Shown in pieces: positions 3,044 to 59,230 of a stretch of DNA of 64,000 nucleotides; position 1 is the first letter of the stretch; each line of letters starts with the position of its first letter. The stretch lies in contig JAZDSV010000002.1 in assembly GCA_036784855.1 (NCBI GenBank), forward strand, positions 480,501 through 544,500. The letters run 5' to 3'. Both the position numbers and the translations under genes were made by a program. Below the pieces are notes generated by a model. It had not been told where the DNA came from, did not search any database, and was given only the letters and a program-made list of their open reading frames with translations. The stretch comes from Aphelidium insulamus (Eukaryota; Aphelidiomycota; Aphelidea; Aphelidiaceae).

Positions 3044-4222
3044 CTAACTATCTTCATCTTCATCGTCCTCTTCGTCTTCGTCGCCGCTGATCTCGGCATT
3101 CTCGCGCTCGGCACGCTCCATCAACATTGCCAGCTCTTGGTCCTCAGTCTCGGAAACAGCGCGCGGCTAAAGGGAGTGGATTAGCATGTGTAAATACAAG
3201 GGCGATCAAATCACAGTGACGCACCTTCATCTTGACAGTTATGCTCCCGTTGAAACCCTTGATGACCTCATCAATCTTGGCAATAGCCTTCTCCAGCGTC
3301 TCGATACCGTGCTGCTTGTCCATGCAGTGGGTCAGCATGATGTAGAGCGGTGGCGCCACTAGCCGGATCTTGATATCGGCCGTCTCTGTTTTGCAGGCCT
3401 CGCCCGCGAACAGAGCCTGCTTGACGGCCTCCACGCCCTCGTAGCCAAAACACGTGACTTCAATGTCGGCACGGATCTTGAGCGCGTGAGGCGTCATCCT
3501 GCGGCGAATGTTGGACAACAGCTCCTCTTTGAGGCTGGGTGTCATCTCGATACCCTCAAACACGGAGTCGGGCTCACTGGAAGTTATTAGATAATGTCCA
3601 TAATAGTATGCACACTCCGGTATAAGAGCTGCTTACGTGATGGAGTACTTGAACGCGTCAAACGCGTGTCCATACTTGCGGTAGAGCGGCCAGCCAATCT
3701 GTTCGTAGAGAGTTTCCAGCGACGCGCCCATCTTGTCGGCGACATGGCGCATAATCGAGTGAACCGTCTTGGATTTCATAAACTTTTCCTCGCACTTGGC
3801 CACGTCCTCGGGCGACACGCGGCGCTTGGACAAGTCAATGTAGCCTGCCGTCAGTGTAAGTGATGTACGGATGTGTACAAGTACCAGCACTCACCCTTCT
3901 CCTTGTCCACACGCAACACCACCACCACTTCGTTGCGGCCGACGCGAATCAGCTTCTGTATGCTACGAATGCGCCGCCGACTCAGCTCCGACAGCAGAAT
4001 CATGCCCTCCGTGTTATTGTACTCGAGCAGGTGCACGTAGGCGCCCATCTCGGCAATCTGGCGCACGTTCACCATCACCAGGTCCTCCACTTCGGGGTAC
4101 TTGTTCTCGTACATCCTATCCGTGTATACAATGTCAGTGTCCGCCAGTGCATGTGTACATGTGCATGGCCGTCATGGGGAGACGTGCCTGCATTGCAGCG
4201 AGTCCTTTTGCGGTTCCGCCAT
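3044..4222 (-). CDS. EIF2S1: translation initiation factor eIF2 alpha subunit
   Basis: Alpha subunit of the eIF2 GTPase, which carries Met-tRNAi to the ribosome. Minus-strand exons: 4222-4188, 4115-3895, 3844-3637, 3576-3225, 3166-3044. The S1 domain is near-identical to the family ([20 protein letters not shown]), and the kinase target region [14 protein letters not shown] keeps the regulatory serine (Ser51 of human), so control by eIF2alpha kinases is expected. The helical and C-terminal domains follow ([26 protein letters not shown]), with an acidic tail of D/E. Exon 1 encodes [11 protein letters not shown] plus two bases and joins exon 2 to give [15 protein letters not shown], matching the conserved SCRFYQHKFPEVED register. 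That junction requires a GC-AG intron (4187-4116, donor CAG|GCACGT). Introns are otherwise GT-AG. Confidence 0.95.
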
Positions 4223-4324
4223 TGCCTGCTGCCTTGCTAATGAATCAGGATCGGTTAAGGTTGGTGATATTAGCATCAAGTGCTCCTAATTAATTTGCAT
4301 TTAAATACACTGCACGGCAATAAC

Positions 4325-4564
4325 GTGCAGTTAATGTTGCCTTGTAATCTTTCAACAACAAGAACAAGATGTTAATAGCCTTTAATACCCATTTTTACTG
4401 ATTTGCCTTTTTTATTGATGTGCAGTTAATGTTGCCTTGTAATCTTTCAACAACAAGATGTTAATAGCCTTTTATACCCTGTTTTATTGGTGTGCAGTTA
4501 ATGTTGCCTTGTAATCTTTCAACAACAAGAACAAGATGTTGAAAGCCTTTTATACCCTTTTTTT
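4325..4564. repeat. three-copy imperfect tandem repeat
   Basis: Three tandem units each start with GTGCAGTTAATGTTGCCTTG and run through TCTTTCAACAACAAG and AAGATGTTAATAGCC to a T-rich end. They begin at 4325, 4420 and 4492. Units are about 95, 72 and 73 nt; the middle one lacks the GAACAA insertion, and the first carries an extra T-rich stretch. It lies in the 600-bp gap upstream of eIF2alpha and the next plus-strand gene. No ORF runs through it. Confidence 0.85.
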
Positions 4565-4821
4565 TACTTATCATCTCAGTATGCAGATCTCAGTGTGTAG
4601 ACACTTCTCGCATGATATTGACTTTACATGGCAGTATAACGCAGTATTCAGCAGCACGCACAAGTATTAGATTTAACTAGCCTCTGATGTATTTTAGTAA
4701 TAAAGCCTTCATAGGACTGTATTTAATAGCATGCAGACAAGAATGAGATGTCGCTTGTCACATGCCTTTCTTGCCGTATATGTTATATTAGTCACTGGCT
4801 GAACCTGTCAGACAACCACTG

Positions 4822-5282
4822 ATGACTGCGACAGACGACTTCCACGCGCGGCATCCCAGCACCGGTCTGCTGGGCCAGTTGCGCCGCGTCCACGTCTGCT
4901 CCCAGGCGTTCACAGAGTACTTCCACACCGTGCCCGCCATCACGGCTGAGAATGACCGGCGTGCCGCTCGCCGGGAGCTGTGTCAACTACTGTCTGACGC
5001 GCAGACACAACTGGCCACGGCTACACGTGGCACTAATAGTGGTGGACAGGCACTATTTGCCTCTGCAACGCCGCCCACTGAGCGAGAACTGGCGGCGATG
5101 GACGCGCGTGGTAAGCACTGTAGCATCAGCTGGATCGTGATGCGGCACTCTCTGACGCCGCAGATGGCATGAGTGCGGGCGACAGTGAAGAGTGCCGTGG
5201 CACTGCCGAGACCACACCAGCCACTTCAGCCACCAAAATGCTGCCGTGGTGTGCATTCGAGTTGCACGGCTCCGGCTTGTAA
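4822..5282 (+). CDS. hypothetical protein, mostly helical, 135 aa
   Basis: Two exons, 4822-5110 and 5164-5282, joined by a GT-AG intron (donor GTAAGC, acceptor CGCAG). The product has a soluble, Arg/Ala/Gln-rich helical segment (VCSQAFTEYFHTV, ENDRRAARRELCQLL) and a T/S-rich tail ending in FELHGSGL. I recognise no family. Its stop codon lies only 8 bp before the start of the downstream methyltransferase. An alternative is that both form one spliced gene: phase-compatible donors exist near 5246-5257 that could join acceptor 5363. Transcript data would decide. Confidence 0.5.
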
Positions 5283-5290
5283 TAAACAGC

Positions 5291-6096
5291 ATGACTGTGG
5301 ACTACGAGTACACGTTCGACGCCGATGACAGCGACGCGGAGGGAATGGGGACTCCATTGACAGCCTGCATCTACAGCAGGATCCCAGCGGCGTTATGGCG
5401 GCCGGTATCGGGGCAACCGTGTGGGACAGCGCGCTGGTGCTGTGCAAGTACCTGGAGTTGCAGCGCCGTCGCTCTCGACACCGCGCCCTGGACACCAACA
5501 AGGGTGCGGACACCGCCGACAAGGAGCAGCCGCACTGGCAGCCAGAGAAGTGGAATCGTATACTGGAGCTGGGCGCCGGGACGGGCGTTGTGGGCCTGGT
5601 GCTGGCGTCGTTGCTGACGGAGACATCATGCCGAATGGTGCTGACAGACCGTCTGGCCGCGCTGCCTCTACTTCGGCGCAACGTCGACGCGTTCCTGGCT
5701 ACTGGCACTGGTGGTGACCGCACACATACGGACTTGACGGTGCAAGAGTTGGACTGGACCAGTGCTGGCAAGTCACAACTGGACAGCGCTGCAGACAACG
5801 CTGTGCACGTCACGTATGATCTGGTGCTGGTATCGGACTGCGTGCACTGGCCAGAGCTGTTTGAACCGCTGATACAGACTCTGCTACGTGCATGTCATGC
5901 CGACACCCTGGTGCTGCTGTGCTACGAGCGGCGCGACTTTCCCACCGAGGTCTCGTTCTTTCGGCAGCTGGGCGAGCATTTCCACTTTCAGCACGTCACT
6001 GCCGAGGACTTTCACCCGGACTGGTGCAGTGTGGACGATATCTACTTGTTCCGATGTCGGTTACGTTCGCCGCCATTGGCTGGCACGGTGCAGTAG
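5291..6096 (+). CDS. VCPKMT/METTL21D-like lysine methyltransferase
   Basis: Class I SAM-dependent methyltransferase of the Methyltransf_16 (METTL21) family, about 249 aa. Exons 5291-5307 and 5364-6096, joined by a 56-nt GT-AG intron that restores frame. The N-terminal LHLQQDPSG followed by GATVWDSALVLCKYLE matches the VCPKMT start. SAM motif I is ILELGAGTGVVGL, the acidic loop is VLTDR, the DxxY-like motif is VLVSDCVHW, and the post-motif is LCYERRDF, with C-terminal VDDIYLFRCR. VCPKMT trimethylates a lysine of the AAA ATPase VCP/p97; substrate here is inferred from best resemblance only. A mutated fragment of this gene is copied at 28993-29193. Confidence 0.8.
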
Positions 6097-7145
6097 ACAT
6101 CAGTTGCGTTATATACGTGTTGTTGAATTCTATTGCACCCTCTCTGTGGCTCTGCTTGTTCTCACATCGTTTTGGGCGGCATTTCTCGAGAACCTGCTGG
6201 AAGGCATATTGCTATAACTTGATAAATGCCACTTTGCTAGTTGAACCCATTGATAAGTGTGCACGTGATAGTTGGCGGGGACAAACAGCTTGAACTTGTA
6301 TTGTGTCAGCAACAACGCAGGCGTATTGCGATGGCAGCAACGATTTTGCCGATACCAACGGTCACCTTCTCGAAACACTGCAGCTCTCATTATCTTGGGG
6401 ATGAGAGCTATGCTTTCGTCCGCCAGGAGCACATCATCAGTAGTGTCTAACCGCATATTGTCTAACGCGAGCAATGCCGCGATTTCGAATTGAAACTTTG
6501 AACCAAGTTGACATGCTAAATCTAGTCTTGAGCCAACTGGTAATTCAACGGAATAGAATCGTTTCTGTATTGTGGTCTGATGGTTACATCAAAAACTCAA
6601 GTAAGCTTGACTGTAACGTACCTCGGATGCATTCTCGGGAAGGCACCGAAAGTATTGCTGATTTGATACAATACATCTGCTAGTAACCACTTCAGACACC
6701 CGAGCGCGCCAGTCTAATGGTGCATAACATTTGACGGCATTCCTTTTGCTGTCAAATCCTGCCATCTGTAATACACGTCTTGCCGGCTCACTCTGAAGAA
6801 GCTTGGCCAAACTATTTGAATTCCTTATCGAAATCCTCTTGATCGTGCGAATAGTCACTGCTGTAGTCATCCCCGCACGATATCTGAGCAATCTTCCTAA
6901 TCGACAACAGCAATTTCGCCTTGGGCGTGAGCGACTGGTCATGACCGCGGAACAATACAGTTCCAGCGCAAATGCCAATATTTATCAATACCTGTGACGC
7001 GTAAATATCATTGTAATTGATTTGAATTAAATAATTCCAGGTTGAGGCGCGGATCATTCTGTTCCCTTTTACGCTTTGCTACAGACTAGCATTAATCAGC
7101 CAGCGAGACCATCGCTCACCTTTGACGGCATCCACACCTGCTGCA
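6097..7145. other. gene-poor interval with one dispersed repeat
   Basis: About 1 kb without a convincing gene. The minus strand has two weak ORFs (about 7057-6812 and 6474-6130) with no recognisable domain and no credible joining. A 99-bp segment at 6484-6582 recurs at 29193-29291. Confidence 0.5.
6484..6582 (+). repeat. 99-bp dispersed repeat, copy 1
   Basis: Segment from TTCGAATTGAAACTTTGAAC to GTGGTCTGATG. A second copy of the same length lies at 29193-29291, diverged by roughly ten substitutions. No coding function is evident. It is one of three pieces joined in the chimeric segment at 28.97-29.33 kb. Confidence 0.85.
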
Positions 7146-7148
7146 CTC

Positions 7149-7167
7149 TTGCATACACACACACTCT

Positions 7168-7219: not shown

Positions 7220-7220
<1 letters not shown>

Positions 7221-7224
7221 CAGT

Positions 7225-8087
7225 ATGGCCCTGGTCAACATTCACAACGTCGAGGTGCTGGACAACCCGGCACCGTTCCGCAACCCGCTGCAGTTTGAGA
7301 TCACGTTTGAGTGCATAGCGCCGCTCGATGACGGTATCTATCTGTTTCGACATCCACAATATGCTTATTCACTCACTCACTCACTCACTCACTCACTCAC
7401 TCATCCATGCAGACCTGGAGTGGAAATTGATATACGTGGGGTCGGCAGAGACGCCAGACTGCGACCAGGAGCTGGACAACATCATGGTCGGTCCGGTGCC
7501 GGTCGGTGTCAACAAGTTTGTGTTCCAGGTGAGAGAGATGCATATTATGCATATATATATATATATACTCACTGTGCAGGCCAATGCTCCGGACCCAGCA
7601 CGAATTCCCGCCACTGATGCCGTGGGCGTGACGGTGGTGCTGCTCACGTGCTCCTATCTGAACAGGGAATTTGTGCGAGTGGGCTACTACGTCAACAACG
7701 AGTACGACAACCAGCCGATGCAAGACGAGCCGCCCGAGCAGCCCGACTATGACCGGCTACTGCGCAGTATTCTCGCCGAGAAACCCATTGTCACCAGGTT
7801 TCCCATTGCATGGACCAAGGGCAAGTGCATGCGATATTATTTTGTTTGTTTCTTATGCATGCTTTTACTTACTAATGCGAATGAATAATGCAGAGATCCC
7901 GCCGCCCGAAGTTGTCATGGTCGAGGGCAATCCGGATCAGGAGCCGGCAGAGTTTGAAGTGCACGGCGGCATCACATCGTCATCTCCCGTGGACTCGGCG
8001 ATGGACGCCACTACAGATGATATGGCGATGCAGCAACAGCAGCCGCCAGCCGCAGACAGTGCAGCAATGAGTGGCATGGTGGCCTAG
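7225..8087 (+). CDS. ASF1: histone chaperone ASF1
   Basis: H3-H4 chaperone working in nucleosome assembly and exchange. Exons 7225-7333, 7413-7528, 7580-7820, 7894-8087 give about 219 aa. The immunoglobulin-like core is highly conserved: [80 protein letters not shown]. The C-terminal tail is acidic and then Q/P/A-rich, as in fungal and protist ASF1. Intron 1 contains a (TCAC)n tract and intron 2 an AT tract. Intron 3 (7821-7893) begins GCAAGT and must be GC-AG: exon 3 then ends TGGACCAAGG and continues in frame as [12 protein letters not shown], while a GT donor would break the frame. Confidence 0.96.
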
Positions 8088-8563: not shown

Positions 8564-8600
<37 letters not shown>

Positions 8601-11625: not shown

Positions 11626-12957
11626 CTAGCGACCAAGTGGTGGCGCTATAACGCTGTCGCAATGCAGCTGTATTCCAGCTCGAGTGCAAGTATTGTTCAA
11701 TTGCGATAGTGCGGTGCGATATTGTGCCTCCAGTTCGTTACCACAATCACTTGGCTGCTTCAGCATGCCTCCGAGAGCCAGTTCTTGCAGCTGGAGACCT
11801 GATGGCAGGGCGGATGATATAGCTGCCGAGATATTCTCGATCGTTTGCAATGTCAAAGTATTACACGACAGATCTAGACGTTTTAACGCGGGGCAGGTAG
11901 ATAGTAGATCCGATATTTGCTGGGAGATTATGTCAGTCAGCTTGTTCCCAGGCAGGTATAGTGACTCGAGAAGAGGCAGCCTGTCAACGAATCTTAGCTC
12001 AGAGATAAAGTTTCCAGTAACGTTGAGACTGGCGAGCGTCGAAGTCAGCGATAACTCGTCCAATGAAGTAATTTGGCAACTGGAAATATCCAAGTCTGCG
12101 AGTGTGAGCGCTCTGGGTCCAATGGCTTGAAGCAGAGATATTGCGCTACGCGCGCTGATATTATTAAGTCGCAACCTTGTCAAGCTCATTTGTTTCGCGA
12201 CTTGTAGGTTATCCGGCACGCCATAAGTGTCTATATCTCTATCGGCAGCATCCACCAGCGACATGGAAAAGTCTTCAAGTGTGGTGGAACACAGAATGCT
12301 ATACAGCATCTTTGCAATGGACTTTGCGGCACAGTCCTTCACCTCAAGGCCCATCAGTGAAACGGTCTCCAGCCGTCCAGTAGGGGAACGTATCGCATCA
12401 GCAATGGCACATGCGCCCTGTTCCGACAGCACAGAGTCGTCAAGGTTCAGGTGCGATAGATTGCACAATGTCGACATCGACGTGGTAATCGGTCCATTGC
12501 ACCCCAATAGCAGTGAGTTTAGTAACGGCGACTGCCGAACATCACTGACGGCATCACACAGAACTTGAATAGCATCACTTGACAAGCCCTTGCAGCCTAG
12601 GTCCCATCGGCCAAGGATTGCATGCGATTGAATGTCTGATGCACCAGTGCACTTGCGCATCTCATCGACGATAATCTGCAAATGCGCACAAGAGAACCCG
12701 GTGCCCACTGACAGAGATTTGAGCGGCACACCGGCCAGCCAACGAGTCGCCAACATCTGGCCAATAGCCACGGCAATCTCGTCCGTCATTGTCGGCGCAC
12801 CGCTCGCGCTCAACGTGTGCACGTGTGTACTATCAGCTACCCGCCGAAGCAGCACCAGCCACTCATCATGACTCAGACGCCGCATTGGCATCAGGTGCAG
12901 CTCCGTAAGCCGCGCGTCATTGGCGCACAGTTGCGCGAACCAATACGCGCTTTCCAT
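11626..12957 (-). CDS. leucine-rich repeat protein (443 aa)
   Basis: Single-exon ORF starting MESAYWFAQLC. It contains several leucine-rich repeats of the RI-like type, e.g. LCNLSHLNLDDSVLSEQG, LTRLRLNNISARSAISLL, LADLDISSCQITSL, LASLNVTGNFISEL, LESLYLPGNKLTDI, LKRLDLSCNTLTLQ. No signal peptide, membrane segment or NACHT/kinase domain is visible, so it is probably a cytosolic or nuclear scaffold. It is divergent from STI1: the two starts are 125 bp apart. Specific function is unknown. Confidence 0.8.
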   Translation of the reverse strand: MESAYWFAQLCANDARLTELHLMPMRRLSHDEWLVLLRRVADSTHVHTLSASGAPTMTDEIAVAIGQMLATRWLAGVPLKSLSVGTGFSCAHLQIIVDEMRKCTGASDIQSHAILGRWDLGCKGLSSDAIQVLCDAVSDVRQSPLLNSLLLGCNGPITTSMSTLCNLSHLNLDDSVLSEQGACAIADAIRSPTGRLETVSLMGLEVKDCAAKSIAKMLYSILCSTTLEDFSMSLVDAADRDIDTYGVPDNLQVAKQMSLTRLRLNNISARSAISLLQAIGPRALTLADLDISSCQITSLDELSLTSTLASLNVTGNFISELRFVDRLPLLESLYLPGNKLTDIISQQISDLLSTCPALKRLDLSCNTLTLQTIENISAAISSALPSGLQLQELALGGMLKQPSDCGNELEAQYRTALSQLNNTCTRAGIQLHCDSVIAPPLGR

Positions 12958-13082: not shown

Positions 13083-14983
13083 ATGACGACGGAGAATATT
13101 GACGAGCTGAAGGCACAGGGCAACAAGGCGTTCTCGTCCGGGGACTATGCCGCCGCTGTGGATCTCTTTTCGCAGGCAATCGCGCTTGACACGTCCAACC
13201 ACGTGCTCTACTCGAACCGTTCGGCTGCCTACGCGTCACTCAAGAACTACACACAGGCGCTGGCCGACGCTGATCAGTGCATTCAGATTAATGGCTCTTG
13301 GTCAAAGGTTCGCGTGATCATTGAGTTGTTGCGTCCTTGCAGTACTTATGGCTCTTCTACAGGGATATGGACGCAAAGGCGCGGCTCTATTTGGCCTGGG
13401 ACGCCTTGAAGAGGCGGAGAAAACTTATAGCGAGGGAATGAAATTGGACCCGGCCAACACCACTCTTAGCAAGGGCTTGCAGGAGGTCCAAGCTGCCATT
13501 CAACAGAAATGTAAGTTGCTAAATTATGCACATGTATAGATTGCAGACTAACATTGCGATAGCCAACCCGATGGGAGGGCTGGGACAGATCTTTGGCGGC
13601 GATGTGTTGGCCAAGATTGCTGGCAACCCGCAGATCAGCAAGTACCTGGCCGACCAGGACTATGTGCAAAAGATCCTGGCGCTACAGAGAGATCCCAATA
13701 GTCTGACGCAGTGCCTACAAGACCCGCGCATCATGCAGACAATGGGTGCACTGATGGGAATCAATCTGTCGACCGCGTCCGCGGACAAGTTTGGTGATGA
13801 TGCTAGCAGTGCGGCCGACTCGCCCATGCAAGAAGACGCGCACGTCGAGGAGGTAAAGGCCGACAAACCTGCCGCCGCACCCGAACCCGAAGTAGCCATG
13901 GCCGAGCCGGAGCCTGAAATTCCATCAAATGTCGCCGACTCGAAAAAGGAAAAGGAACTCGGCAACCAAGAGTACAAGAAAAAGTCGTTTGAAGCGGCGC
14001 TGGTCCACTACGACAAGGCGTGGGAGCTGAACCAGGAAGACATCACCATCCTGACCAACAAGTCTGCCGTGTACTTTGAACAGGGCAACTACGACAGCTG
14101 TATAGCGACGTGTGAAGAGGCCGTGGAGAAGGGCCGCGAGCTGCGTGCCGACTACAAGGTCATCGCAAAGGCGTACGGACGCATCGGCAATGCGTACGCC
14201 AAGAAGGACGATGTGGTCAATGCCATCAAGTTTTACGAAAAGTCTTTGGCGGAGCATCGCACTGCCGACGTGCTGGACCGCCTGCGACAGATGGAGAAGC
14301 TCAAGGTGAAGGCGGAGCGCGAGGCATACCAGAACCCAGAGCTGGCGGAGGAAGCGCGCAACAAGGGCAACGAGTTGTTCAAGCAGGGAAAGTTTGCCGA
14401 CGCTGTGCAGCAGTACACCGAGTCTATCAAACGTGCTGAATCAGATCCCCGTGGCTACAGCAACCGCTCGGCTTGCTACATGAAGTTGATGGCGCTGCCA
14501 GATGCGTTGCGTGACGCCGAAAAATCCATTGAACTCGACGCCACGTTCATCAAGGGTTACATTCGCAAGGCCGCCGTGCAGTACGCGATGAAAGAGTTTA
14601 CAAAGTGTATGCAGACGTGCGACGAGGCGCTGCCCGTGGACGCGGAACATCACGGCGGCAAGCATCGCGCCGAAATCGAAACGCAGAAACAGAAGGCATC
14701 ATTTGGCATGTATGGTGTGGACGAGACCGCCGATCCCAACGAGACGCAGGAACAGCGCGCCCAACGAGCCATGCAGAACCCCAAAGTGCAGGAAATATTG
14801 TCGGACCCGGTGATGCGCGCCATGTTGGAACAGATGTCACAGGATCCGGGAGCGGCTCGCGAACACATGAAGAACCCTGCCGTTCGTGAAAAGGTGCGTG
14901 TGGTGTGTCGAAAATAGCATTTACTATTCTCACCTCTCTAGATTCAATTCCTGGCGTCCATGGGTGTCATTGGCATGCGCTAG
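13083..14983 (+). CDS. STI1: Hsp70/Hsp90-organising co-chaperone STI1/HOP
   Basis: TPR adaptor handing clients from Hsp70 to Hsp90. Exons 13083-13307, 13363-13510, 13563-14893, 14942-14983 give about 581 aa, the family's usual size. Layout: TPR1 (ELKAQGNKAFSSGDYAAAVD, VLYSNRSAAYASL), DP1 region (NPQISKYLADQDYVQKI), an acidic A/E/P linker, TPR2A (KELGNQEYKKKSFEAAL, AYGRIGNAYAKK), TPR2B (ARNKGNELFKQGKFADAV, YSNRSACYMKL), and DP2 at the end (NPKVQEILSDPVMRAMLEQM). Carboxylate-clamp Lys/Asn/Arg positions are present in TPR1 and TPR2. A very short last exon adds IQFLASMGVIGMR. Confidence 0.95.
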
Positions 14984-15071
14984 ATATTGCATAAAACGGC
15001 ACAATACTTATTTTCAATATAACATTGTCCATGTGCTAAAAATAGCATCCCTTCACTTATTGTGACTTGAA

Positions 15072-22898: not shown

Positions 22899-22949
22899 TT
22901 GACTCACTTTAATAAACTCATTTCTTTCTTTCGTCATAGAAAAAAAAAG

Positions 22950-25900
22950 ATGACAAGCACGTTTACGGAAAAGTACTCGCCGCTGGTTCCATTCCACACG
23001 CTACCGCAGGACGATCTGTGCCGCTTGCTGGAGCTGGAACCGCATGATGGCCTCACTGATGTGCAGGTGGGCCAATGATACTGATAGTCCCTGTGCAGTG
23101 CTGCGTTGCTTACCGATAAGGTGCAAACTCGACAAGCGGCAGTTGGCCTGAATGAGTTGCGGAATGGCGCATCGGGCACCCCGTGGTACAAGACTCTGTT
23201 TGCTCAGATCGCCAATGCAATGACGGTGGTGCTGATCATTGCGATGGCAAGTCTTGTTCTCAAAGGACTGGGTGATATGTGTTAAACTCCTCGCTGCACA
23301 GATTCTATCACTGGCGGCACAGGACTACGTGGAGGCGGGCGTGATAATCTTTGTCATTGTCACCAACACCAGTATTGGTTTCGTGCAAGAGAATCGCGCG
23401 GAACGAACGATGGAAGCGCTGCGCAAAATGGCGTCTCCAACTGCCCGGGTGATTCGCAACTTTGGCGCCGTGGAGCATATCCCTGCCAATGCCGTGGTGC
23501 CTGGTGATGTCTTGTTCTTTGAAGAGGTAACATATATATATATATATATATGTTACCTCTTCTTTTATATATATGTATGTTGTATATGGAAAGATTTCCC
23601 GTTGATAACGCGTATAGGGAGACATTATTCCAGCGGATGCGCGTGTAATTGAAGTTTTTAATCTGCAAATTGACGAAGCTCTTCTAACCGGCGAGGCGGT
23701 GCCCATACACAAAAAGTTTGTAGTGGCACCTCAAACTATTCTTGCATCTAAAGCGTTATTGTAGAGTTATGGCAATGGCCAACGCCGACGAGCCAATTGG
23801 AGATCGGGTCAACTTGGTGTACTCTAGCACAACTGTCTCGCAGGGTCGCGGCAAAGGTATGCGTAGTGCTTCTCATCGATGTATTTATATTCTTAGCCAT
23901 TGTTGTTCGCACTGGGCCCAATACGGAAATCGGCAAGATTGCCCAGCAGATTAGTGATAATGAGGTGCAGGAGCAGACACCCGTGCAGAAAACCATGAAC
24001 TTTTTGGCCTATTTTCTCCTCGTGTTTGTCCTGCTGCTCGCCGTCATTGTGTTCTCGGTCAACAAATGGAATTTAACACACGACACCGTTAGCTATGCCA
24101 TTTCAGTTGGCATTGCCGTAATTCCAGAGGGACTCGTGGCTGTGGTATGTTGTCCAAATATTCTTTCTACACTTTTTGACTTACATGATAGATTACGATC
24201 ACGATGGCATTTGGCGTACGTGCAATGGCAAAGCAAAGAGCTCTGGTTCGTCGCCTGGTGGCATTGGAGGCGCTCGGCTCCGTTACCAACATTTGCAGTG
24301 ACAAGGTATGTCGGTAGATCTTTATAGTTTCTCTGATAGAAAAATTATACAGACCGGGACGCTTACGCAAGGCAAAATGCTTGTCAAGAGGCTTTTTTTG
24401 CCATCGGCAGGGTACTTTTCGGTGACCGGCGAAGGCTATCGCCCATCGGGTGGTGTCTACGCCGTGGCAGACGCCAATTCGGAGGCGACGGCGTTCAGTG
24501 TGCCGATACAATGGCCGGAACAAGCGTCCATGTCACTCAAGCAGTTGGTGCAGTGTGCCAGCATCTGCAATATGGCGGTGATAAAACGCCGGGGAATGTC
24601 GGCTGGTGTGACAGAGCGTTCCGTGGATGTTCTCAACCAGCAGTCACCGACGCGTCGCGCCTCCGTTGACAGCATTCACTGGGCCGAGACCGCGGTGGAT
24701 GACTGGCAGGCTTTCGGTGACCCCACTGAGGCGGCACTGCAGATCCTGGCGTGGAAAGCGCGGATTCCTCGTTCGTCGCTGGTATCCAAGGGCAACTCCC
24801 AGCGGCGCTTTACCCTGGTGCAAGAGTTTGCTTTCGACTCCACGGTGAAACGGATGACCACTGTGGTGCGCGATAACCAGACGGGTGCCTACACAGCGTA
24901 TACTAAGGGCGCAGTGGAAACTTTGTTGGCCTTGTCCGTGGAGGTAATGACTGCCGACGGCGCGGGTGAGGCGATCTCCGACGCTGCCGATTTCCAAAGC
25001 CTAATTGCATCACATATGGAAATGTTGGCTGCTCGCGGGCTGGTAAGTACAAATTTTGAGCGCACATTTTGATGTGTCATCTGATGTGTTCCAGCGCGTG
25101 CTGGGGTTCGCCACTCGCCAGTTGGCCTTCAGTGATGATAAAGAGCTGCAGGGTTTGAAGCGCGAACAGGTGGAAGCCAATTTGTGCTTCATTGGCATCA
25201 GTGGTATATATGATCCGCCACGGGCCGAGACAGCTACGGCCATCAAAGAGTGCAAGCGTGCCGGCATCACCATTCACATGGTGACGGGAGATCATCCGAA
25301 AACTGCGTGTGCAATTGCCCGCGAGATCGGCTTGCTGCCCGATGACAAGCAGGCCAATGCGTACGATGTTATGACTGCGTCCGAGTTTGATCGTATCCCG
25401 GATGAGCAGTTGCACAGCCACCAACAGTTCCCAACTGTGATTGCACGCTGCTCGCCCACCACAAAGGTCAAGATGGTCAATGCACTGCAGCGGTGCGGAA
25501 AGATTGTTGCAATGACGGGCGACGGAACGAACGACGCTCCCAGTCTGAAACGTGCCAATGTTGGCATCGCCATGGGCATGGCCGGCAGCGACGTGGCGAA
25601 GCAAGCCAGCGAAATCGTGCTCACCGACGACAATTTCGCCACGATTGTTCGCGCGGTGTCTGAGGGCCGGCGAATCTTTGCCAACATCCAGAAATTTGTG
25701 GTGCATCTAATGTGCGGCAATGTGGCGGAGGTAATTGCACTGATTCTCGGGCTGGGCTTCACGGATTCTCGCGGCCAGTCCGTCTACCCAATGTCGCCCG
25801 TGCAAATCCTCTTTCTGAACATGGTGACGTCGTCGTTTCCGGCAATGGCGCTCGGTATCGAGAAGGGCCGCAGTGACATCATGCAGCAACCGCCGCGCCA

Positions 25901-28968: not shown

Positions 28969-29011
28969 AAGATTCCACTTCTCTGGCTGCCTGCCAGAGA
29001 AGTGGAATCTT
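28969..29011. repeat. 19-bp perfect inverted repeat at chimera edge
   Basis: AAGATTCCACTTCTCTGGC and its exact reverse complement, separated by TGCCT. The right arm is the first 19 bp of the methyltransferase-derived segment, so the left arm looks like an inverted copy made when the segment was inserted. Confidence 0.95.
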
Positions 29012-38004: not shown

Positions 38005-41000
38005 ATGGAAGCCGTGATCGCGAAATTGCTGACCCGCATCCAGCAGGTGGGTGCGGACACGTCGTCAACAGACCACACGCGTCCAAGCGACCAAGAGGAG
38101 CTGCTACTTACTCGGCTGCACATGGCACTATGCTATACATCGTGCTGGTACCTGGTGGAGCTGCTTCAAGCATTGCTGGATAGACTGGAAGCCGGGTCAC
38201 CGGTCCAGGCGGCCACGTCAGCAATCGACCTCAACACAGGCATCGTGTGTATTACACTTCACGCTTGTTTATCAATGCCACGCGTAGTTGATGCCCTGGC
38301 TGCAATGTTGGGGCATTCTTTGCGACGTGTTCAAGGAGACTCTCCGTCGTGTATTAGTTTGCGTACTGTATGCTGCGATTTAAGCGCTGATATATGCCCT
38401 CCTGACATGATTTCGGAACATATACTTGACTTTCAGTTCGATAAATGGATTACGTGGAGCTTGCTACATGTGTACGATCGTGCGCGACGATTATCCATCT
38501 GGTGCAATGAGGCAGGCGTTGAAGTGCTACCGGGGAAAGTCGATGCTTGGTGTTCGACAGCAACCTCGTGGTTCTCGGTATATGTATCGCCTAGCTTGCT
38601 GGACCTGTCTCGTTTAATTTCCACTTGGTTTTCAGACTACGCAGGTGAGTTTCAGATCAATTGTGCCATTCTTATAATCAGTAGCTTGCGGCATCAATAC
38701 TAATTCGTATGAATCCGCCACGACATTATATTGCAAAGTAGCTGTTCGTGTTAGTGAACCAGAATGCGCTGCAGTTAAGGCTAATTTCGACGTATTCGCC
38801 TCAATGACCAACGCTTTTAAAGATTTGGTACTACAATTTGATGAAGCGTTTTCGGATAGCACGTTAATTGAGGTGAAAATATATCAGGTTGTGGCACAAA
38901 TTGCCTCATCAAGGATAGATACTGACTTCGATTTCAGCAACGTTTGTCAATTTTAGCCCACCAAGTGGTTGTCATGAAATTGAAGAACTTACGGACCTTT
39001 TATCGTCTCTAATTGGGGAAAATTTTAGCGATCCAAAAATTTATAATCACATTGGACGTGCCATACAAGTACTGGAAACGGCAAGTGCCGGATTAAGTAT
39101 TTCGGCACAAATGGTAACGTAATTTTTGTGTATTTACACCAATGTTAAGGTGTAGGCAACATTTGCGGTATCTCCGGAACTTCCTCCGTTTCCGGCGGAA
39201 TGGATAGGAGATGAAGTTGCAGTGTGCCACGATCTTATCAAATTTATTAAAACTGCTGGAAATCGAGCTAACGGTGAACTTATTGATTACTATATACCCG
39301 AAGATCTGGTATCGAGGTTTAAAGCCTTGAAATTTGACAATGTGCTAGTTGAAAATTTGGACGAACAGGATGAAAATGAAGAAGGCATGGCCATGCAGCA
39401 AAATTCGACCAAAAGAGTGCTTCACAAGGACCTACCAGGAAGCAAACGATTAAAAACTAACTCATTGCGCAAATATTCGCCCATACTCAGCTATTTATGG
39501 AGAAACGTGAACCGACTTTCGAATGATGTCAAGAAGATTCGCATATTTTTATGGATGTTGACTGAACAATCTGGTGCTGCGCCCATATCCCCCGAGTGGA
39601 TATCTGCTACTGATAACGGCAAGAATACCGATGAAAACGTTCTTTTCACTCTGCTACTTTGCGAGGAAGCTCGGAAAAGTTATCCAGATGCTGTATTACG
39701 ACGAGTTTTGACTTTTCTTTCACCTAATCGCCTTGGCAAAATTCTTTTGCGTCTTACACCCGAGGAGGATGTGACAGCGAGAGTTATTTGTGACCTCTTA
39801 ACGGAAGTTGACGTGTCCATCTTCTGCTCGATTTTGTCACTGGAACCGAAGTATCCCTCCCTGATCTCAGCGTACGCGTTGCTGTTCCCAAACTTGATTA
39901 ACTTTATTAACTTGATAGTCGTAAGCATCAGAAGTCGTCGATAAAATTTAACGCAACAAATACTTCTTGGGATGGATGGAAGTACCTGCCATGTGCTCTT
40001 GCTGGGTGCCTTTCAGTTTCTTACAGTGTCATGAATGACATGGTCTCGTTTTCATGTCGGATGTGCGATGAAAAAGCTGGTTCCACGCATTTTCTCTCAC
40101 CTGAAGATTCGAGGTACTGTATTACAACACTGAAGGATCTCGTGCACTACAATCAGCCTGAACAGCAACGGGTTGGAGTCACTTTGTATTTAATGCCTAG
40201 AATACTACTGCATGCATTTGATGAGGCTATTAATGATCTGCGAGCTGTATGGAGCGGACTGGTTCAAAGTCATATGTTTACTGTTCGACTTGTCGCTGCT
40301 CAAGTGGCCGACTGCCTAGTTCGATGCGGTGCGAAGTTTAGCTCAGAGTTCGATCGCAACCAGCGCATATGGATATTGAAGTTTTTACGTTCGGTCGAGA
40401 AGGATCAGCGAAACCGAGATCAAGCTAATGCCCCAGATCGCTTATTACATTATGAGTCATGTTTGTGCGCACTTGAGACTATTGGGAGGTGAGTAAAATC
40501 CTGATCTAACATCATAATGTTTAATGCTCGGGACAGAAAATCTGCTATTTGCAGCGGCGATGATTATTTCATCATTGTTCTGCTGGCAATGCTGGAATAT
40601 GTTGACCACGCGGATTTGTATATCGCGAAATTGGCACAGCAAAAGGTTTGCCACATAATGTAGATAACAACTCAATTGTAGATTCTCGACCTTATTTCGA
40701 TTAGCAACGAGTCGATTCTGCTTCAAGGGCAGCCGATGGTAATATATTACCTCGTCGAAAGAATAGTTTCGCGTCCATTTCTCCTGCCGCTTGCTGTTTG
40801 TGCTGTGTACGGCGATGCTTCTTCAAAAGATGAACTCTGCAAAGCAAGAAGCTTCAACGATGATGATCTTAAAAGCCGCCTGACCTCATCGAAACATTTT
40901 AAAAATATTGTTACTCAGCAGCTAGGTTATATTGTTCCAAGGCTAGTTGCATCAAAAAAGACATCCGAACTGAACCAATTGGCGTCACTGTTGGAAATGC

Positions 41001-47336: not shown

Positions 47337-48924
47337 ATGCACGCTGCCACGGCAGTCAGCATTGGTCGGTCCAGGTCGCTGGTGGATGCGTTTGCAGACA
47401 CCTTGACGTCGTGCATGCGCTCAATTACCCGCCAACATGGACCTGTGCCCGCCCGCCAACCACCTCAGCCACCAGGTGCCATGCGGCTACTGGGATGCCA
47501 GGTGCTGCTCACCCCGGACGCCATTGCCGACCGTGTGGAAATCGAGTTCATGCACAGTATGGTGCGCGAGCATTTGGACGACCAGGTCGGCAGATTAGAC
47601 GCGGCGTTGTATGGACAGCTTGACGCGGCCACTGCTCCTGATGCAGCGTCGGCCATTCCGTTTGTTGGTGCTGTGGTGGACAGCGTGGTGCACGGCCGTT
47701 CGGAACTTGCATTCAGCACCGGTGCCTTGCAGACCACTCTATTCTATACGGTGCGCCGTCCCGATACTGATGAAGCTGTGCCGACTACATTTACGCCATT
47801 CTACTTGCCGCCGATGGAAAGACAAACTAAATCAGTGGGTCGTTGGCCGCGCGGCATCCAGCCCGGCAACACAGTATCGGAAGCGCATATGAAGTGGATG
47901 CGTGACTGGAGTGGAAGTAGTGAACAGGTCTCCGCTCCTCAGCAACCCCAGTGGCACTTTGGCAGTGTCACGTGTGACCAAGAGCAGCCGGTACAGTCAA
48001 TGGGCGGCGTGGCGCTGGACAGCCGCGCCAGCACTCTCCTGCTCTACACAGACAACGATCCGTACCAGTCGTTGGCAAAGTTGGACCGCCAGTTCCCAGC
48101 TGCGCGCAAGATGGGATGTGTTGGCGCGTGGACACCGTTCCAGACCGGGCGCCCATTCACACTCCTGCTCAATGACCAGATATATGAGGGTGGTGCTGTT
48201 GGCGTGGCCATGAACAATGATCGCGGTGTTTGCAAGTAATTCTGCTGCTGGCCCAATAACTGGTTACATTGGCTTGGAGGCTCTTGGTCAGGTCTACACT
48301 ATAGCCGAGTATGCACATCATATGTATTTATACCAGTACAAGTATTATAGGCTCATTTTAATTTTAGGTGCCAAGGCAATATTATCTTGTCGCTGGCGGA
48401 CTCTTCACAAAATCCTACCAAAGTTTTGGCCGATCTGCTAGCAGCTACCGACGATGGACTTGCCAGTGCGCCGCCAACAACTGATTACGGTGATTGCTAC
48501 GTACTGCTGCAGCAAGACAACAGCAGTGACAAGTTTGTCGCTCGCAAACTGTCTGGCGGCGACCCTGCGCGCGGTCATCTGGCCGTCGAACACTGGCGGC
48601 GAGACCTGCACTGCGGACAGAAGCTGCAGGCAAGCATTGCTCTGTGATTTCCTGTTGGCTAATATACTTGCGTGACAGTTTGCGCGAAAGCGTGATGCTA
48701 CCACTGCACGGTGGTCACCAATTCAAGTGTCAGGTGGCGATTCTACAGCAGCATTTGTCTCTACCGGATTAGAGAGTAATGTCGCTGATGCAAATGAAGA
48801 TGCTGTCATTGAAGGCGTTCACGACAGTTGTGTGTTTGGAGCGGCCTCTACTTCAGGGATAATCATTGGCGGCAGTGGCATGACGACCGACATTGAGCAT
48901 GAAGCCTTCTGCCTAGATAGATAG
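47337..48924 (+). CDS. FIST-like domain protein with apparent frameshift
   Basis: Exons ~47337-48308 (with a frame change near 48225), 48368-48629, 48679-48924. The string RKMGCVGAWTPFQTGRPFTL followed by GGAVGVAM resembles the FIST_N sensor domain, and GQVYTIAE, CQGNIILSLAD and CVFGAASTSGIIIGG resemble FIST_C. FIST proteins are thought to bind small ligands; some eukaryotic forms carry an F-box, not seen here. The first frame reaches a stop at 48239 after NNDRGVCK, while the next frame, one base later, continues FASNSAAGPITGYIGLEALG with no room for an intron. This could be a sequencing error, a mutation or a programmed +1 shift. Intron 48630-48678 is GC-AG (CAG|GCAAGC) and phase 0. Confidence 0.55.
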
Positions 48925-55568: not shown

Positions 55569-55654
55569 ACAGTAACAACGTGCTGTGCACAATACAATGT
55601 GGAAACAGGCTGCGTTTATTGCCTTCTGTCAACTTGACAGGAAGATTACACATG

Positions 55655-57020
55655 TTACTGCGACGGGGCGGCAGTGGCAGTGGCGGAAACATCGGCGCTG
55701 TTTTCCTTCAGAAACTGCTCCACTTCGCTGCGGTTAAACAGTTTGAACTGGAGTTTGGACGGGGCGCCCGCAACGGTTGGGGCCAATGTCAGGGTGGCGA
55801 TCTCGACTGCGAAGTGTGTGAGACATCTACGTCAAGCGCGTATACGCGTATACATACATCCCTATATATATACATACACATACATACATACATACATACA
55901 TACACACAACTATATACTTACACATACACGCACACATATATACACACACACACATACATACGTACACACATACATATACACATACATATATACATACATC
56001 CAGCTATAGACACAGATACATACATACATACATACGTACACACATACATACATAGATACATACATACAAACATATATCCAACTATAGACATACATATACA
56101 CATACGTACATACATACGTGTATATATACAGCCACACACATATCACAATAATATACATACGCTTCTCAGCATCCATTTTGGTGGTCTCCATGGTCTTGCT
56201 GAGCACCTTGATGGCTAGTTTCTTGGCCTCGGCCAGGCTAATCTCTTCCTTGTAGTCCTGCTTGAGAATGCTCTGAGCGGCGGCATTGTTTGCACCGATA
56301 CAGTGCGCCTTCCAGCCGAAATAGTTGCCAGACGGGTCCGAGTGATACAGCTGGAAGCCCAGATTCTCGTCCCAGCCGGCGTACAGAAACGACACGCCAA
56401 ATGGTCGCAGTCCTGTATATATGAGCACAAGTTAAATACTTGGACGCCTCGCTTGAACAGTGACAAGAGCATAACGCACCGCCATACTGCGTGTAGCCCT
56501 GCTTCAGGTCGCATATCTCACGGGCCAGCTGCTCACACGGCATCGGTTCGTTGTAGTTGACTTGATGGCGCTGTGCCGTCACTCTTGCATGCTGAATGAG
56601 AGTGTTGGCGTCTGACGTAAGCCCAGCCACCGCCACCACCAAATTGCTGTACATGATTAACTATATGTGTGCATGTGCACTGCTTCTCTTACTCGTCCAC
56701 GGCATACAGCTTTTCGGTGGTGAATTGCAGCTGCTCCAACAGCTTGGAGGTGACCCGCTTCTCCGCAGCCAGGATAATGCCATCGGTGGCCAGAATGCCG
56801 AGCGCAGTGCCCGCATGCGAGATGGCCTCCATGGCATACTCGACTTGGAAGAGGCGCCCTGCACCGTGGGCATTAGCACCACGATGAGCAAACTAACTTC
56901 AGGCACACTAACCTTCGGGCGAGAATATCGTGGTACGTGAGTCGTATCTGCGAGCCTGCACACAGACAGTCAGCAGCGGCAAGGGAGCGCACAGGGCGGC
57001 GGCCACAGACAACTTGCCAT
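55655..57020 (-). CDS. PSMA4: 20S proteasome subunit alpha-3 (PSMA4/Pre9)
   Basis: Outer-ring proteasome subunit. Exons 57020-57018, 56955-56913, 56858-56693, 56646-56480, 56412-56161, 55806-55655 give 260 aa. Motifs: [20 protein letters not shown], the alpha signature [74 protein letters not shown] and LKQDYKEE, ending [12 protein letters not shown]. Exon 1 is only the ATG; intron 1 (57017-56956) must be GC-AG (ATG|GCAAGT), because the GT two bases further on breaks frame. The last intron (354 nt) is packed with TACA repeats, unlike the other introns of this window. Confidence 0.96.
55845..56160. repeat. TACA-type microsatellite filling a PSMA4 intron
   Basis: About 310 nt of ACATA/TACA/CACA repeats with interruptions, entirely inside the last PSMA4 intron, which is several times longer than the usual 40-80 nt. 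Confidence 0.95.
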
Positions 57021-57299
57021 CTTTTATGGGAAGTTTGAAACGTGCGTGATTGCTGCAAAGCGGGCTTTATACATGAAGCATTCTGCTAAAGTGTTAATAC
57101 AAGTGGTGCGATATTCCTTCAAGGAAGTTCCTTGTTTATGAATTTCCTTCTATATTAACACAATAGTGCACTATAGTTGTGCACGACTGCTGAATGAATT
57201 CTAGCATTCACACAAAAAGTAAAACAACGACTATATATGTAAGAGACTGTTGTCGGATGCGCCTAGCGCAAATCGCCACAGACAGCATCACACTCGCCA
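57021..57299. other. short intergenic region, no gene seen
   Basis: Contains GTGTTAATA and TATTAACAC arms at about 57092 and 57153 flanking a T-rich stretch, but no RNA gene is recognised. Confidence 0.5.
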
Positions 57300-57903
57300 C
57301 TAGAAGCCGTGCACCTTAATCTGATCCTTGGATGCAATCTTTTCCTCCACCAGAAACTGCTGCACCTTCAACCGATGATCACCTTGCAGCTGGATAACTT
57401 CGCCCAGCTCCTCGTCCTCCACGATGGTGCCGTTGCATGCAAACACCTGCAGCGCGTCAGTGATACGTATTATGTTCTGCAAACGTGAAAGGACAAACCT
57501 TCTTGAACGCTTTGAGTAGCTTTTTCTGATCAAGGTCTGCGGGCAGTCCTTGCAGCGTGGTTAGCGTTTTGCGTCCATTTCTCTGTTGAATTCGCAAGTC
57601 TATGGCGTGAGTCTCACATCCACGAGTATTGAGATGTGCACCACATACGTATGTATGAGCCTGATGAGTTTGCGACGTTGTCTATTTCGCCAGTATCAGC
57701 GAATGGATCTGCACAGATCAGGGGTCAGTATATGGCTACAATGTCACAGACGGGTGCTTGTGCGGGGGAGGTGGCCTATCTCTCTCTCTGTGCAGCGCCA
57801 GCAGCAGCAATGCTCTAGGCCACTGGCACGTGCCGTCAAAAGGCCACCACAACACCACACAGCCAGCGCACTAACCGAATGTGCCCAAGTTTTGAATATT
57901 CAT
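57300..57903 (-). CDS. EIF1: translation initiation factor eIF1 (SUI1)
   Basis: Start-codon-selection factor of the 43S complex. Exons 57903-57876, 57708-57649, 57599-57499, 57446-57300 give 111 aa, close to the usual 113. The joined start MNIQNLGTFDPFAD matches the human IQNLHSFDPFAD register, followed by IHLRIQQRNGRKTLTTLQGL, KKLLKAFKK, FACNGTIVEDEELGEVIQLQ and the C-terminus DQIKVHGF. All introns are GT-AG. The first intron is about 167 nt. The tiny first exon (28 nt) was found only through this conserved start. Confidence 0.95.
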
Positions 57904-58146
57904 ACACTGCGCCGATCGATTAGAGTGTGACTGCGGTGTACGAGAGAAAGGGGGCTGCGGTGAGGGCGGCTGCGGTGTGTGGGAGAGAGAGTGTGTGAGA
58001 GTGTGAGTGAGTGAGACGGATGGATGGATGTGGCGGCGTGCGATGACTGGGCGGGCGCTGATACAAGGCTGGGCGATGGCGTGCTCTGATTGGTTGGCTG
58101 CGTTTCAGATTGATCGGGCGCACCGAGTACTATTATTGCACATGAC

Positions 58147-59230
58147 ATGGTTGCCGATATAGACCTGAGGCGCGCGGACCCGGCGCAGTTGCTGCACGCG
58201 TGCACCTCGCTCGGTTTCTTTTACGTCAGTAATCATGGGATCGACGAATCCCTCATATTCTCCCTATTCCAGCAGGTGAGTGGGTATCGCTATTCTTTAA
58301 AGTTCTGACGTCTCTCCTCGCAGTCCAGGGAATTCTTTGCATTGCCAGCTGATGAAAAACTTCAATATGCAACTGACTCGGCAAGTCCCGGTTTTGGCTA
58401 CGTGGGAGCAGCGGTGGAGAAGCTGGACTCCAATTCTGTAGATTGCAAAGAGGCATTCGACATGCGCTATAAGCACCTAATGAACGATGGTGGTAGTGGT
58501 AGTGCCGCGCATCTGCCTCGTTTACTTGGCAGAACTGTACTACAGCAATTCTGGCGGGCACGTAGTACATATTAATTTAAGCGAAATTTATATTATTACT
58601 AGTAGGAATGCGACAGAGTGTGCCAGCACTTACTTGCAGCATTAAGTCACTCCGATAAATTGGTCAACATGGAACACGTCGCTGCACAGCATCAGACGGC
58701 ACAATCCTCCACTACAATGCGCCTGCTGCACTATCCACCTGCTAGCGGTAGTACAGTCAGAGCTGGCTGGTATGTTCATGTTGTGCATTAAATATGAACC
58801 AACTCGAACTTGTAGTCATTCTGATTACGGGACCCTCACTCTTCTGTTCCAACACCAGGATGGTGGAGAGGGCTTACAGGTGCGACACCCAGGCACACTA
58901 GAATTCGTGCCAGTGCCACCGAAGCCCGGCCGCATTGTGGTCAATGTGGGCGATTTGTTGCAGCTGTGGACGGGCAGCAAACTTGTGAGCGCGGAACATC
59001 GTGTGGTGTCCAGCCAGTCTTCTGCCAGCATGGACCGATATTCCATTGCCTATTTTTGCCATCCATGTGACTCGGCAGTCATTGACAGGGAAACGATTTG
59101 TGATGCGGTACCGGCACACAGTGCAATGCATATCCGCGCACTTGAACGAATGAACAATTTGGTGGGCGGCAGATCGCGCTTCACCGCAGCAGAATATTTG
59201 CAGCTGCGACTGGCCAGTACTTATAAATAA
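58147..59230 (+). CDS. 2-oxoglutarate/Fe(II) oxygenase (IPNS-like)
   Basis: Exons 58147-58275, 58324-58557, 58606-58769, 58816-59230 give 313 aa. The DIOX_N-type start (ADPAQLLHACTSLGFFYVSN, HGID) is followed by SREFFALPADEK. Iron ligands are in HSDYGTLTLL (HxD) and the later His in SAEHRVVSSQ; the 2-oxoglutarate Arg and Ser are in RYSIAYF. This is the isopenicillin-N-synthase/gibberellin-oxidase-like superfamily, which works on many small molecules; no secondary-metabolite cluster is nearby, so substrate is open. Intron 58558-58605 is GC-AG (CGG|GCACGT); the GT four bases later gives a premature stop. Confidence 0.88.

What the first reader, a model, noticed from the sequence alone, without database searches (positions are those of the whole stretch)
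4116..58605. Many introns use GC-AG splice sites
In six genes conserved protein register forces a GC donor: eIF2alpha 4187-4116 (GCACGT), ASF1 7821-7893 (GCAAGT), ENA-type ATPase 23247-23301 (GCAAGT), FIST-like 48630-48678 (GCAAGC), PSMA4 57017-56956 (GCAAGT), and 2OG oxygenase 58558-58605 (GCACGT). In each case the neighbouring GT gives the wrong phase or a stop, and the exon base before GC is G. A seventh is likely in ATR (38859-38937, GCACGT). Out of about 100 introns placed here this is some 6%, against roughly 1% in well-studied eukaryotes. Two donor forms recur, GCAAGY and GCACGT. This suggests a lineage with relaxed donor recognition, perhaps a U1 or U6 change.
Basis: partly seen in the sequence, partly recalled or inferred. 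Interest (0 to 1): 0.85.

Follow-up and report, generated by a model that had tools for sequence, protein, structure and literature searches.

The report
Frequent GC-AG introns, likely aphelid
In this small genome of an early-branching relative of fungi about one intron in twenty appears to start with GC instead of the usual GT, and these GC starts follow a stricter sequence rule than the GT starts, which suggests a testable idea of how the splicing machinery tolerates them.

Summary
GC-AG introns are well supported in this 17.95-Mb genome, at about 5% of introns (5.3%, bootstrap 3.0-7.6%). The estimate comes from an ab initio decoder run on the window plus 20 further 10-kb stretches, with 14 other dinucleotides as controls. 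The seventh (ATR) has a GT-AG solution that fits at least as well. Eight further GC junctions lie inside Pfam matches elsewhere in the genome.

The interpretation 'relaxed recognition, U1/U6 change' does not hold. Four U1 candidates and one U6 keep the canonical pairing sequences; GA donors stay at control level. GC donors are stricter than GT donors: in A-N-GT context 18 of 23 GC donors carry +4A against 10 of 103 GT donors (p=1e-10).

The organism is probably an aphelid (inferred). High GC-AG rates are known elsewhere; new here are the lineage and the sharp +2C/+4A coupling in a +4-pyrimidine genome that keeps METTL16 and SNRNP27K. No RNA evidence was available.

The parts
4116..4187 (-). 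GC-AG intron 1 of eIF2alpha (G|GCACGT ... GATAG), 72 nt
   Evidence: No GT-AG solution from the ATG at 4222. The joined [12 protein letters not shown] aligns without gap to eIF2alpha of solved structures. The decoder alone preferred a GT donor in another frame.
3040..4222 (-). eIF2alpha gene (exons 4188-4222, 3895-4115, 3637-3844, 3225-3576, 3040-3166; the last piece runs a few bases past the stop)
7821..7893 (+). GC-AG intron of ASF1 (G|GCAAGT ... TGCAG), 73 nt; outside the conserved domain, so supported by frame and coding potential only
   Evidence: Chosen by the decoder even at the low uniform prior; one weaker GT-AG alternative; ASF1 match ends at residue 153, just before the junction
23247..23301 (+). 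GC-AG intron in ENA-type/Ca2+ P-type ATPase (G|GCAAGT ... CACAG), 55 nt
   Evidence: [15 protein letters not shown] aligns without gap to a bacterial Ca2+-ATPase. Chosen by the decoder at GC prior 0.04. The GT alternative inserts three residues and has a weaker site.
48630..48678 (+). Putative GC-AG intron in 'FIST-like' gene (G|GCAAGC ... GACAG), 49 nt; weakest of the six
   Evidence: No GT-AG solution between the anchors, but no Pfam match for the piece, no relative aligned, and not chosen by the decoder
56956..57017 (-). GC-AG intron directly after the start codon of PSMA4 (ATG|GCAAGT ... TGCAG), 62 nt
   Evidence: [12 protein letters not shown] aligns from residue 1 to proteasome alpha type-4 chains. 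No GT-AG solution from that ATG. The decoder alone read through in another frame.
58558..58605 (+). GC-AG intron in 2OG-Fe(II) oxygenase (G|GCACGT ... AGTAG), 48 nt
   Evidence: The only frame-keeping solution; DIOX_N and 2OG-FeII_Oxy domains on either side in frame; chosen by the decoder at GC prior 0.04
38873..38918 (+).
   Evidence: Keeps the frame; summed site and length score slightly above the GC reading (0.9 against 0.1)

Best explanation
These are true major-spliceosome (U2-type) GC-AG introns, about 5% of the introns of an early-branching holomycotan, most likely an aphelid. They are not a sign of loose donor recognition. The donor signal works as a pairing budget. Most GT donors here carry a pyrimidine at +4 (typically GTAYGT) and so a mismatch to U1 there. 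GC donors have their mismatch at +2 and are accepted mainly when the rest of the site is intact (G|GCAAGT). Shown by computation: the introns, the rate, the +2C/+4A coupling, the rarity of the perfect U1 match G|GTAAGT, canonical U1 and U6 pairing sequences, and the presence of METTL16, SNRNP27K, U1C and LUC7 genes. Inferred: that the introns are spliced as read; that +4A makes up for +2C by pairing with U1 psi5 and/or, after handover, with m6A of the U6 ACAGA box placed by METTL16; and that the organism is an aphelid.
For: Rate and controls. Junctions inside conserved alignments: in the window eIF2alpha, PSMA4, ENA; elsewhere inside Pfam matches in G-alpha (VYR|MFDVGGQR), PMCA, citrate synthase, Spo11, p24, Hop2, a WD40 protein and, weakly, an HD-domain protein. 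Scaled by k-mer supply (GC:GT donors over GC:GT k-mers) GC acceptance is about 0.48 for AAGT, 0.10 for ATGT, 0.04 for ACGT (from counts). G|GTAAGT: 3 seen, 13.4 expected if positions were independent, permutation P=0.00015, against 15 G|GCAAGT. U1 x4 and U6 canonical at the pairing bases. METTL16 with CNPPF; SNRNP27K with the Met at human position 141 kept.
Against: No RNA data: every junction is inferred from frame, coding potential and homology. GC donors with +4C or +4T exist (5 of the 16 supported ones, eIF2alpha, 2OG and G-alpha among them), so +4A is a preference, not a rule. Among all GT donors +4A is not rare (85 of 414); the contrast is sharp only in the A-N-GT context. GGTAAGT is a rare word in the sample (12, against 79 GGCAAGT), so base composition may explain part of its rarity at donors. 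The four U1 candidates score below Rfam's gathering score. The pairing account is not tested here.
Confidence: 0.7

Rival explanations
1. Relaxed donor recognition through a changed U1 or U6 snRNA.
For: GC rate several-fold above 1%; the single scored U5 gene has CGCCUUUUCCU where the family has CGCCUUUUACU in loop 1.
Against: U1 5' ends and U6 ACAGAGA canonical. GA and other dinucleotides stay at control level. GC donors are stricter than GT donors. The U5 bases recalled to pair with the exon (CUU) are unchanged.
Confidence: 0.06
2. Neutral tolerance: mutation or biased conversion towards C at +2, kept where the rest of the site is strong, with no special mechanism; as suggested for algae with G+C-rich genomes.
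For: Iwata and Gotoh (PMC3033335 passages) found 39.6% and 22.2% GC-AG in two G+C-rich algae with canonical U1 5' ends. The coupling to AAGT is what survival of strong sites would give.
Against: G+C here is only about 52% (for the window); the same paper calls the correlation rather weak outside its three richest species. Does not by itself explain why GT donors lack AAGT.
Confidence: 0.25
3. Artefact: T-to-C assembly errors, or wrong gene models with GT donors elsewhere.
For: Ab initio models are noisy. ATR turned out to have a GT-AG solution. FIST has no domain match.
Against: GTAAGT is as common as a Markov model expects (63 against 60.2), and all four U1 candidates keep GTAAGT on the reverse strand, so there is no general T-to-C loss in that word. 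AAGT controls: 2 donors in 14 dinucleotides against 18 for GC. Junctions inside G-alpha switch II, at PSMA4 residue 1 and others.
Confidence: 0.05
4. GC donors mark regulated (alternatively spliced) introns, weak on purpose.
For: GC donors are enriched in alternatively spliced genes of human, nematode and Arabidopsis (start of abstract of PMC2490688 in a search listing).
Against: Several host genes here are housekeeping ones (eIF2alpha, PSMA4, citrate synthase); not tested with transcripts.
Confidence: 0.08

Closest known systems
U2-type GC-AG introns of fungi, animals and plants
   Same: GC donor, AG acceptor, G at -1 and +5. Human GC sites are 0.87% with consensus G at -1 and +5 (PMC11732430 section 15 read).
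   Different: About 5% of introns here; GT-AG is 98.7% in surveyed fungi (PMC7072748 passages). Here +4A separates GC from GT donors, because GT donors prefer +4 pyrimidine.
GC-AG-rich algae: Aureococcus, Micromonas pusilla, Chlorella sp.
   Same: Many GC-AG introns, with U1 5' ends AUACUUACCUG unchanged in the three algae whose U1 was examined (Aureococcus and two Micromonas); cause called an enigma (PMC3033335 passages).
   Different: Those genomes have 65.9-69.5% G+C and 7.7-39.6% GC-AG; here about 52% and 5%, and in a relative of fungi.
Symbiodinium and other dinoflagellates
   Same: GC donors are a standard class (PMC4083563 passages).
   Different: There GC is about as frequent as GT and GA is used too; here GA is at control level.
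Saccharomycotina with +4U donors
   Same: Pyrimidine at +4 with unchanged U1 and U6 pairing sequences (PMC10581693 abstract, sections 6 and 9, passages).
   Different: There the +4U switch goes with loss of METTL16, SNRNP27K or its Met141 and with few introns. Here both genes and the Met are kept, introns are dense (1.7 predicted per kb), and C is nearly as common as T at +4 (140 and 150 of 414).

Membership tests
U2-type GC-AG introns | GC donor with AG acceptor, not explained by a GT donor in frame | tested here: met
   junctions inside conserved alignments or Pfam matches. Not met for ATR.
U2-type GC-AG introns | Strong remaining consensus, G at -1 and +5 | tested here: met
   Of 42 GC donors, doubtful ones included: -1G 29, +5G 30, +6T 32; of the 18 GCAAGT donors 15 have -1G
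U2-type GC-AG introns | Canonical U1 5' end and U6 ACAGAGA in the genome | tested here: met
   (U1 candidates below Rfam's gathering score, U6 above it)
U2-type GC-AG introns | Spliced in vivo by the major spliceosome | not testable with these tools
   No RNA reads at hand
U12-type (minor) introns | Donor of the RTATCC type | tested here: not met
   The GC donors listed read most often GCAAGT, then GCATGT and GCACGT; none reads GCATCC (motif recalled). U12 snRNA was not searched.
Dinoflagellate-type donor use | GA donors used beside GC | tested here: not met
   GA 1 of 453 at uniform prior; 20 at equal prior, within the control range 8-27, with 1 in A-N-GT context
Saccharomycotina-type +4 switch | Loss of METTL16 or SNRNP27K or its Met141 | tested here: not met
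   METTL16 gene at C12:147646-148519; SNRNP27K at C86:430725-430865 with Met kept
Saccharomycotina-type +4 switch | No compensating change in U1 or U6 | tested here: met
Genome of an aphelid (Aphelidium) | Size and G+C like Aphelidium insulamus (18.93 Mb, 274 scaffolds, 52.05%) | tested here: inconclusive
   17.95 Mb, 169 contigs; window 0.514 G+C, the 20 loci 0.459-0.560. Published values from passages of PMC10608142.
Genome of an aphelid (Aphelidium) | Proteins closest to aphelids | tested here: inconclusive
   For PSMA4 the hit of highest identity among the 120 listed (72% over 84%) is a EukProt entry with prefix Partr_v1, which I take from memory for Paraphelidium tribonemae. The eIF2alpha tree sets the query's clade beside the Mitosporidium clade (SH-aLRT 84). 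No named Aphelidium protein was seen in the two lists.

The most novel reading that the evidence does not exclude
The genome runs two donor grammars, GTAYGT and G|GCAAGT. The second depends on +4A meeting the METTL16-made m6A of the U6 ACAGA box, so that U6 methylation licenses GC donors, while perfect U1 matches (G|GTAAGT) are selected against because they slow the U1-to-U6 handover. GC donors would then be a defined class with its own requirement rather than tolerated mistakes, and the model that +4 pyrimidine preference goes with loss of METTL16 and SNRNP27K would not extend beyond yeasts.
Probability: 0.22. Interest if true: 0.78.

Novelty: new variant of a known kind. Interest (0 to 1): 0.5.

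Why it matters
Why some lineages have many GC-AG introns with an ordinary U1 has been called an enigma in print (PMC3033335 passages). Where GT donors favour +4A as well, as in human, one cannot easily see whether +4A helps GC donors. Here GT donors mostly lack A at +4, so its enrichment in GC donors stands out and makes a compensation model testable. The genome also separates two things linked in yeasts: +4 pyrimidine donors, and loss of METTL16 and SNRNP27K. Practically, gene models that allow only GT donors would be wrong at about one intron in twenty; in the window this would damage eIF2alpha, PSMA4, an ATPase and an oxygenase.

Tried and rejected
Rejected: the ATR GC donor (GT-AG solution); a U1 or U6 change; dinucleotide-independent relaxation; a systematic T-to-C error; a turtle source suggested by the top eIF2alpha hit (its score comes from a duplicated domain). 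The decoder's own GC calls in the window at 11654-11727, 14973-15090 and 57600-57639 are taken as artefacts of fused or wrong models. My first hand-spliced ASF1 had wrong exon ends and stops; the decoder's model was used instead. A confidence cut by donor removal thinned GC and controls alike (at a gain of 4 nats: GC 11, controls 0-6, GT 230) and was not used for the rate. Intron counts drop duplicates from overlapping window pieces and genes that overlap a better-scoring one or score under 15; nothing else was dropped, so the 42 GC donors include doubtful ones, which the controls are meant to subtract. A fifth U1 match (E 0.019) and a second U6 match (E 0.9) were weak and set aside. Sixteen short loci outside the training set (51,072 bases) gave 97 GT, 3 GC and 2 other donors. 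Paper searches for GC-AG or splice-site reports in aphelids or early fungi listed none that names a GC-AG rate for them in title or start of abstract; most papers behind them were not opened. Parker et al. and the other papers cited were read only in the sections or passages named.
Full report
What the window is. The window is G000:C86:480501-544500 of a 17,953,404-base genome in 169 contigs. It carries intron-rich eukaryotic genes. The spliced eIF2alpha is closest to an unnamed metagenome protein (86%) and then to chytrids and Glomeromycota (up to 75%); the listed top hit, a turtle protein, owes its score to a duplicated domain. A tree of 55 rows puts the query's clade beside the Mitosporidium clade with modest support (84). 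For PSMA4 the hit of highest identity among the 120 listed is a EukProt entry with the prefix Partr_v1, which I recall as Paraphelidium tribonemae. Size and G+C resemble Aphelidium insulamus (18,927,283 bp, 274 scaffolds, 52.05%; passages of PMC10608142). I take the organism for an aphelid, most likely of that genus; this is inferred.

I enumerated the GT-AG and GC-AG pairs that keep the frame between fixed codons. The 2OG oxygenase has a single solution, with GC. eIF2alpha, PSMA4 and the FIST-like gene have no GT-AG solution from the anchored frame. The decoder described below chose other frames for eIF2alpha and PSMA4, but these lose the N-termini that align without gaps to solved eIF2alpha ([12 protein letters not shown]) and proteasome alpha-4 chains ([12 protein letters not shown], from residue 1). 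The ATPase and ASF1 have one weaker GT alternative each; the ATPase alignment runs through the GC junction without a gap. The ASF1 junction lies just past the domain match. The FIST-like piece matches no Pfam family. In ATR a GT-AG intron (38873-38918) keeps the frame and scores slightly better than the GC reading, so the seventh case is not supported.

Genome-wide rate. I wrote an ab initio gene decoder (three-periodic coding model, intron length, donor and acceptor profiles, starting with no preference at +4) and trained it on the window and 20 further 10-kb stretches from contigs C86 and C1 (264 kb). With the 15 non-GT dinucleotides at one low prior it placed 453 introns: GT 410, GC 18, TA 5, TG 5, TC 4 (all in one locus, in repeated copies), the remaining eleven types 0-2 each. 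Then each non-GT dinucleotide in turn was given a prior of 0.04 with the rest barred: GC received 42 donors (GT 414), the 14 controls 8-27 (mean 18.6). With AAGT at +3 to +6 GC received 18 and the controls 2 in all; with A at +3 and GT at +5,+6 GC 23 and the controls 27 in all, a mean of 1.9. The excess gives 5.3% GC among introns, bootstrap over loci 3.0-7.6%. Sixteen short loci outside the training set gave 97 GT, 3 GC, 2 others. The samples are small and come from few contigs.

GC introns in conserved proteins elsewhere. In the 20 loci the decoder called 26 GC donors at prior 0.04. I tested ten recognisable gene models against Pfam. In eight the junction lies inside a listed match: G-alpha (VYR|MFDVGGQR, no gap against a solved chimera), a PMCA-type Ca2+-ATPase, citrate synthase, Spo11, a p24 protein, Hop2, a WD40 protein and, in a weak match, an HD-domain protein. 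In a U1A-like protein the junction lies in the region of its first RRM, whose coordinates the table did not print. In a MutS-like protein it lies outside the match. For most of these a GT-AG path exists on paper but deletes or inserts residues; for p24 that path scores about the same as the GC one (1.2 against 1.0) and would insert 17 residues.

Donor grammar. GT donors prefer T or C at +4 (150 and 140 of 414; A 85, G 39); the commonest are GTATGT 56, GTACGT 31, GTGAGT 17, with GTAAGT only 10. The commonest GC donor is G|GCAAGT (15 of 42). Words with TAAGT are rarer than words with CAAGT in the sample (GTAAGT 63, GCAAGT 235), so I scaled by word supply: GC acceptance relative to GT is about 0.48 for AAGT, 0.10 for ATGT and 0.04 for ACGT (counts). 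The perfect U1 complement G|GTAAGT is seen 3 times where 13.4 are expected from independent positions (permutation P=0.00015), against 15 G|GCAAGT; but the word GGTAAGT is itself rare in the sample (12, against 79 GGCAAGT). Within GT donors, +3G goes with +4A and +3A with +4 non-A (p=8e-4). This fits a budget of mismatches per site; it does not prove one.

Machinery. Four U1 candidates begin AUACUUACCUG; they score 42-44 bits, below Rfam's gathering score of 69.5. The U6 gene (74.9 bits, above its cut-off) carries AUACAGAGAAGAUUAGC. METTL16 is present with its CNPPF motif and aligns to the solved U6 (A43) methyltransferase. SNRNP27K is present and keeps the methionine that aligns with human Met141 (the number is my count along the 155-residue chain). 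U1C has one strong match and LUC7 one gene. The one scored U5 gene has C for A in loop 1 (CGCCUUUUCCU); the meaning is unknown.

Against error. GTAAGT is as frequent as a Markov model expects (63 against 60.2) and is kept in all four U1 candidates on the reverse strand. So a systematic T-to-C error in that word is unlikely. Single errors cannot be excluded without reads.

Known background. GT-AG makes up 98.7% in surveyed fungi (PMC7072748 passages). Human GC sites are 0.87% with G at -1 and +5; the review suggests that U5 and U6 contacts together make up for +2C (PMC11732430 section 15). Very high GC-AG rates are known in G+C-rich algae with unchanged U1 5' ends (PMC3033335 passages), and GC is about as common as GT in Symbiodinium (PMC4083563 passages). 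Loss of U6 m6A in fission yeast hits introns with +4A (abstract of PMC8163875). In Saccharomycotina +4U goes with loss of METTL16, SNRNP27K or its Met141 and with low intron number (PMC10581693 abstract, sections 6 and 9, and passages). From memory, not from a call: several filamentous fungi have GTRNGT-like donors, and Neurospora has about 1% GC-AG introns. A weak +4 and strong GC sites are therefore not new as such.

Verdict. The explanation by a U1 or U6 change does not. Best supported is a standard GC-AG class, enlarged several-fold, and conditioned on +4A in a genome whose GT donors mostly lack it. Whether that condition works through U1 pairing, U6 m6A or both is open, and RNA reads plus a fission-yeast minigene test would settle most of it.

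Noticed in passing
window 28987-29331: Three abutting fragments copied from distant places of the same window: 207 nt of 5535-5741 (92%), 99 nt of 6484-6582 (93%), 44 nt of 22949-22992 (95%), in that order, overlapping by 1 and 4 nt. Looks like patchwork filler DNA or a templated repair scar.
   Followed up: partly
window 4325-4563: Three direct copies of a 72-nt unit (64% and 94% ungapped identity to the first) about 100 nt upstream of the eIF2alpha start.
   Followed up: no
L036 1501-1608 (G000:C99:70991-71098): The only scored U5 gene has CGCCUUUUCCU in loop 1 where the Rfam consensus has CGCCUUUUACU.
   Followed up: partly
window 48200-48310: The reading frame of the FIST-like gene seems to shift by one base near 48225 (assembly error, unseen intron or broken gene; read by eye); the C-terminal piece matches no Pfam family.
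   Followed up: partly
window 55807-56160: The last intron of PSMA4, as I splice it, is 354 nt long and largely simple repeat, while the median intron is about 52 nt; the decoder split it into four introns.
   Followed up: no
window 23067-23120: A GT-AG intron of the ENA-type ATPase (GTGGGC ... GATAAG) that the decoder replaced by a TG donor; the joined [19 protein letters not shown] aligns without gap to the N-terminal region of a Ca2+-ATPase.
   Followed up: yes
L019 2327-4081: The same 'TCACGTATGT' pseudo-donor recurs four times in repeated gene segments; all four TC donor calls come from here.
   Followed up: no
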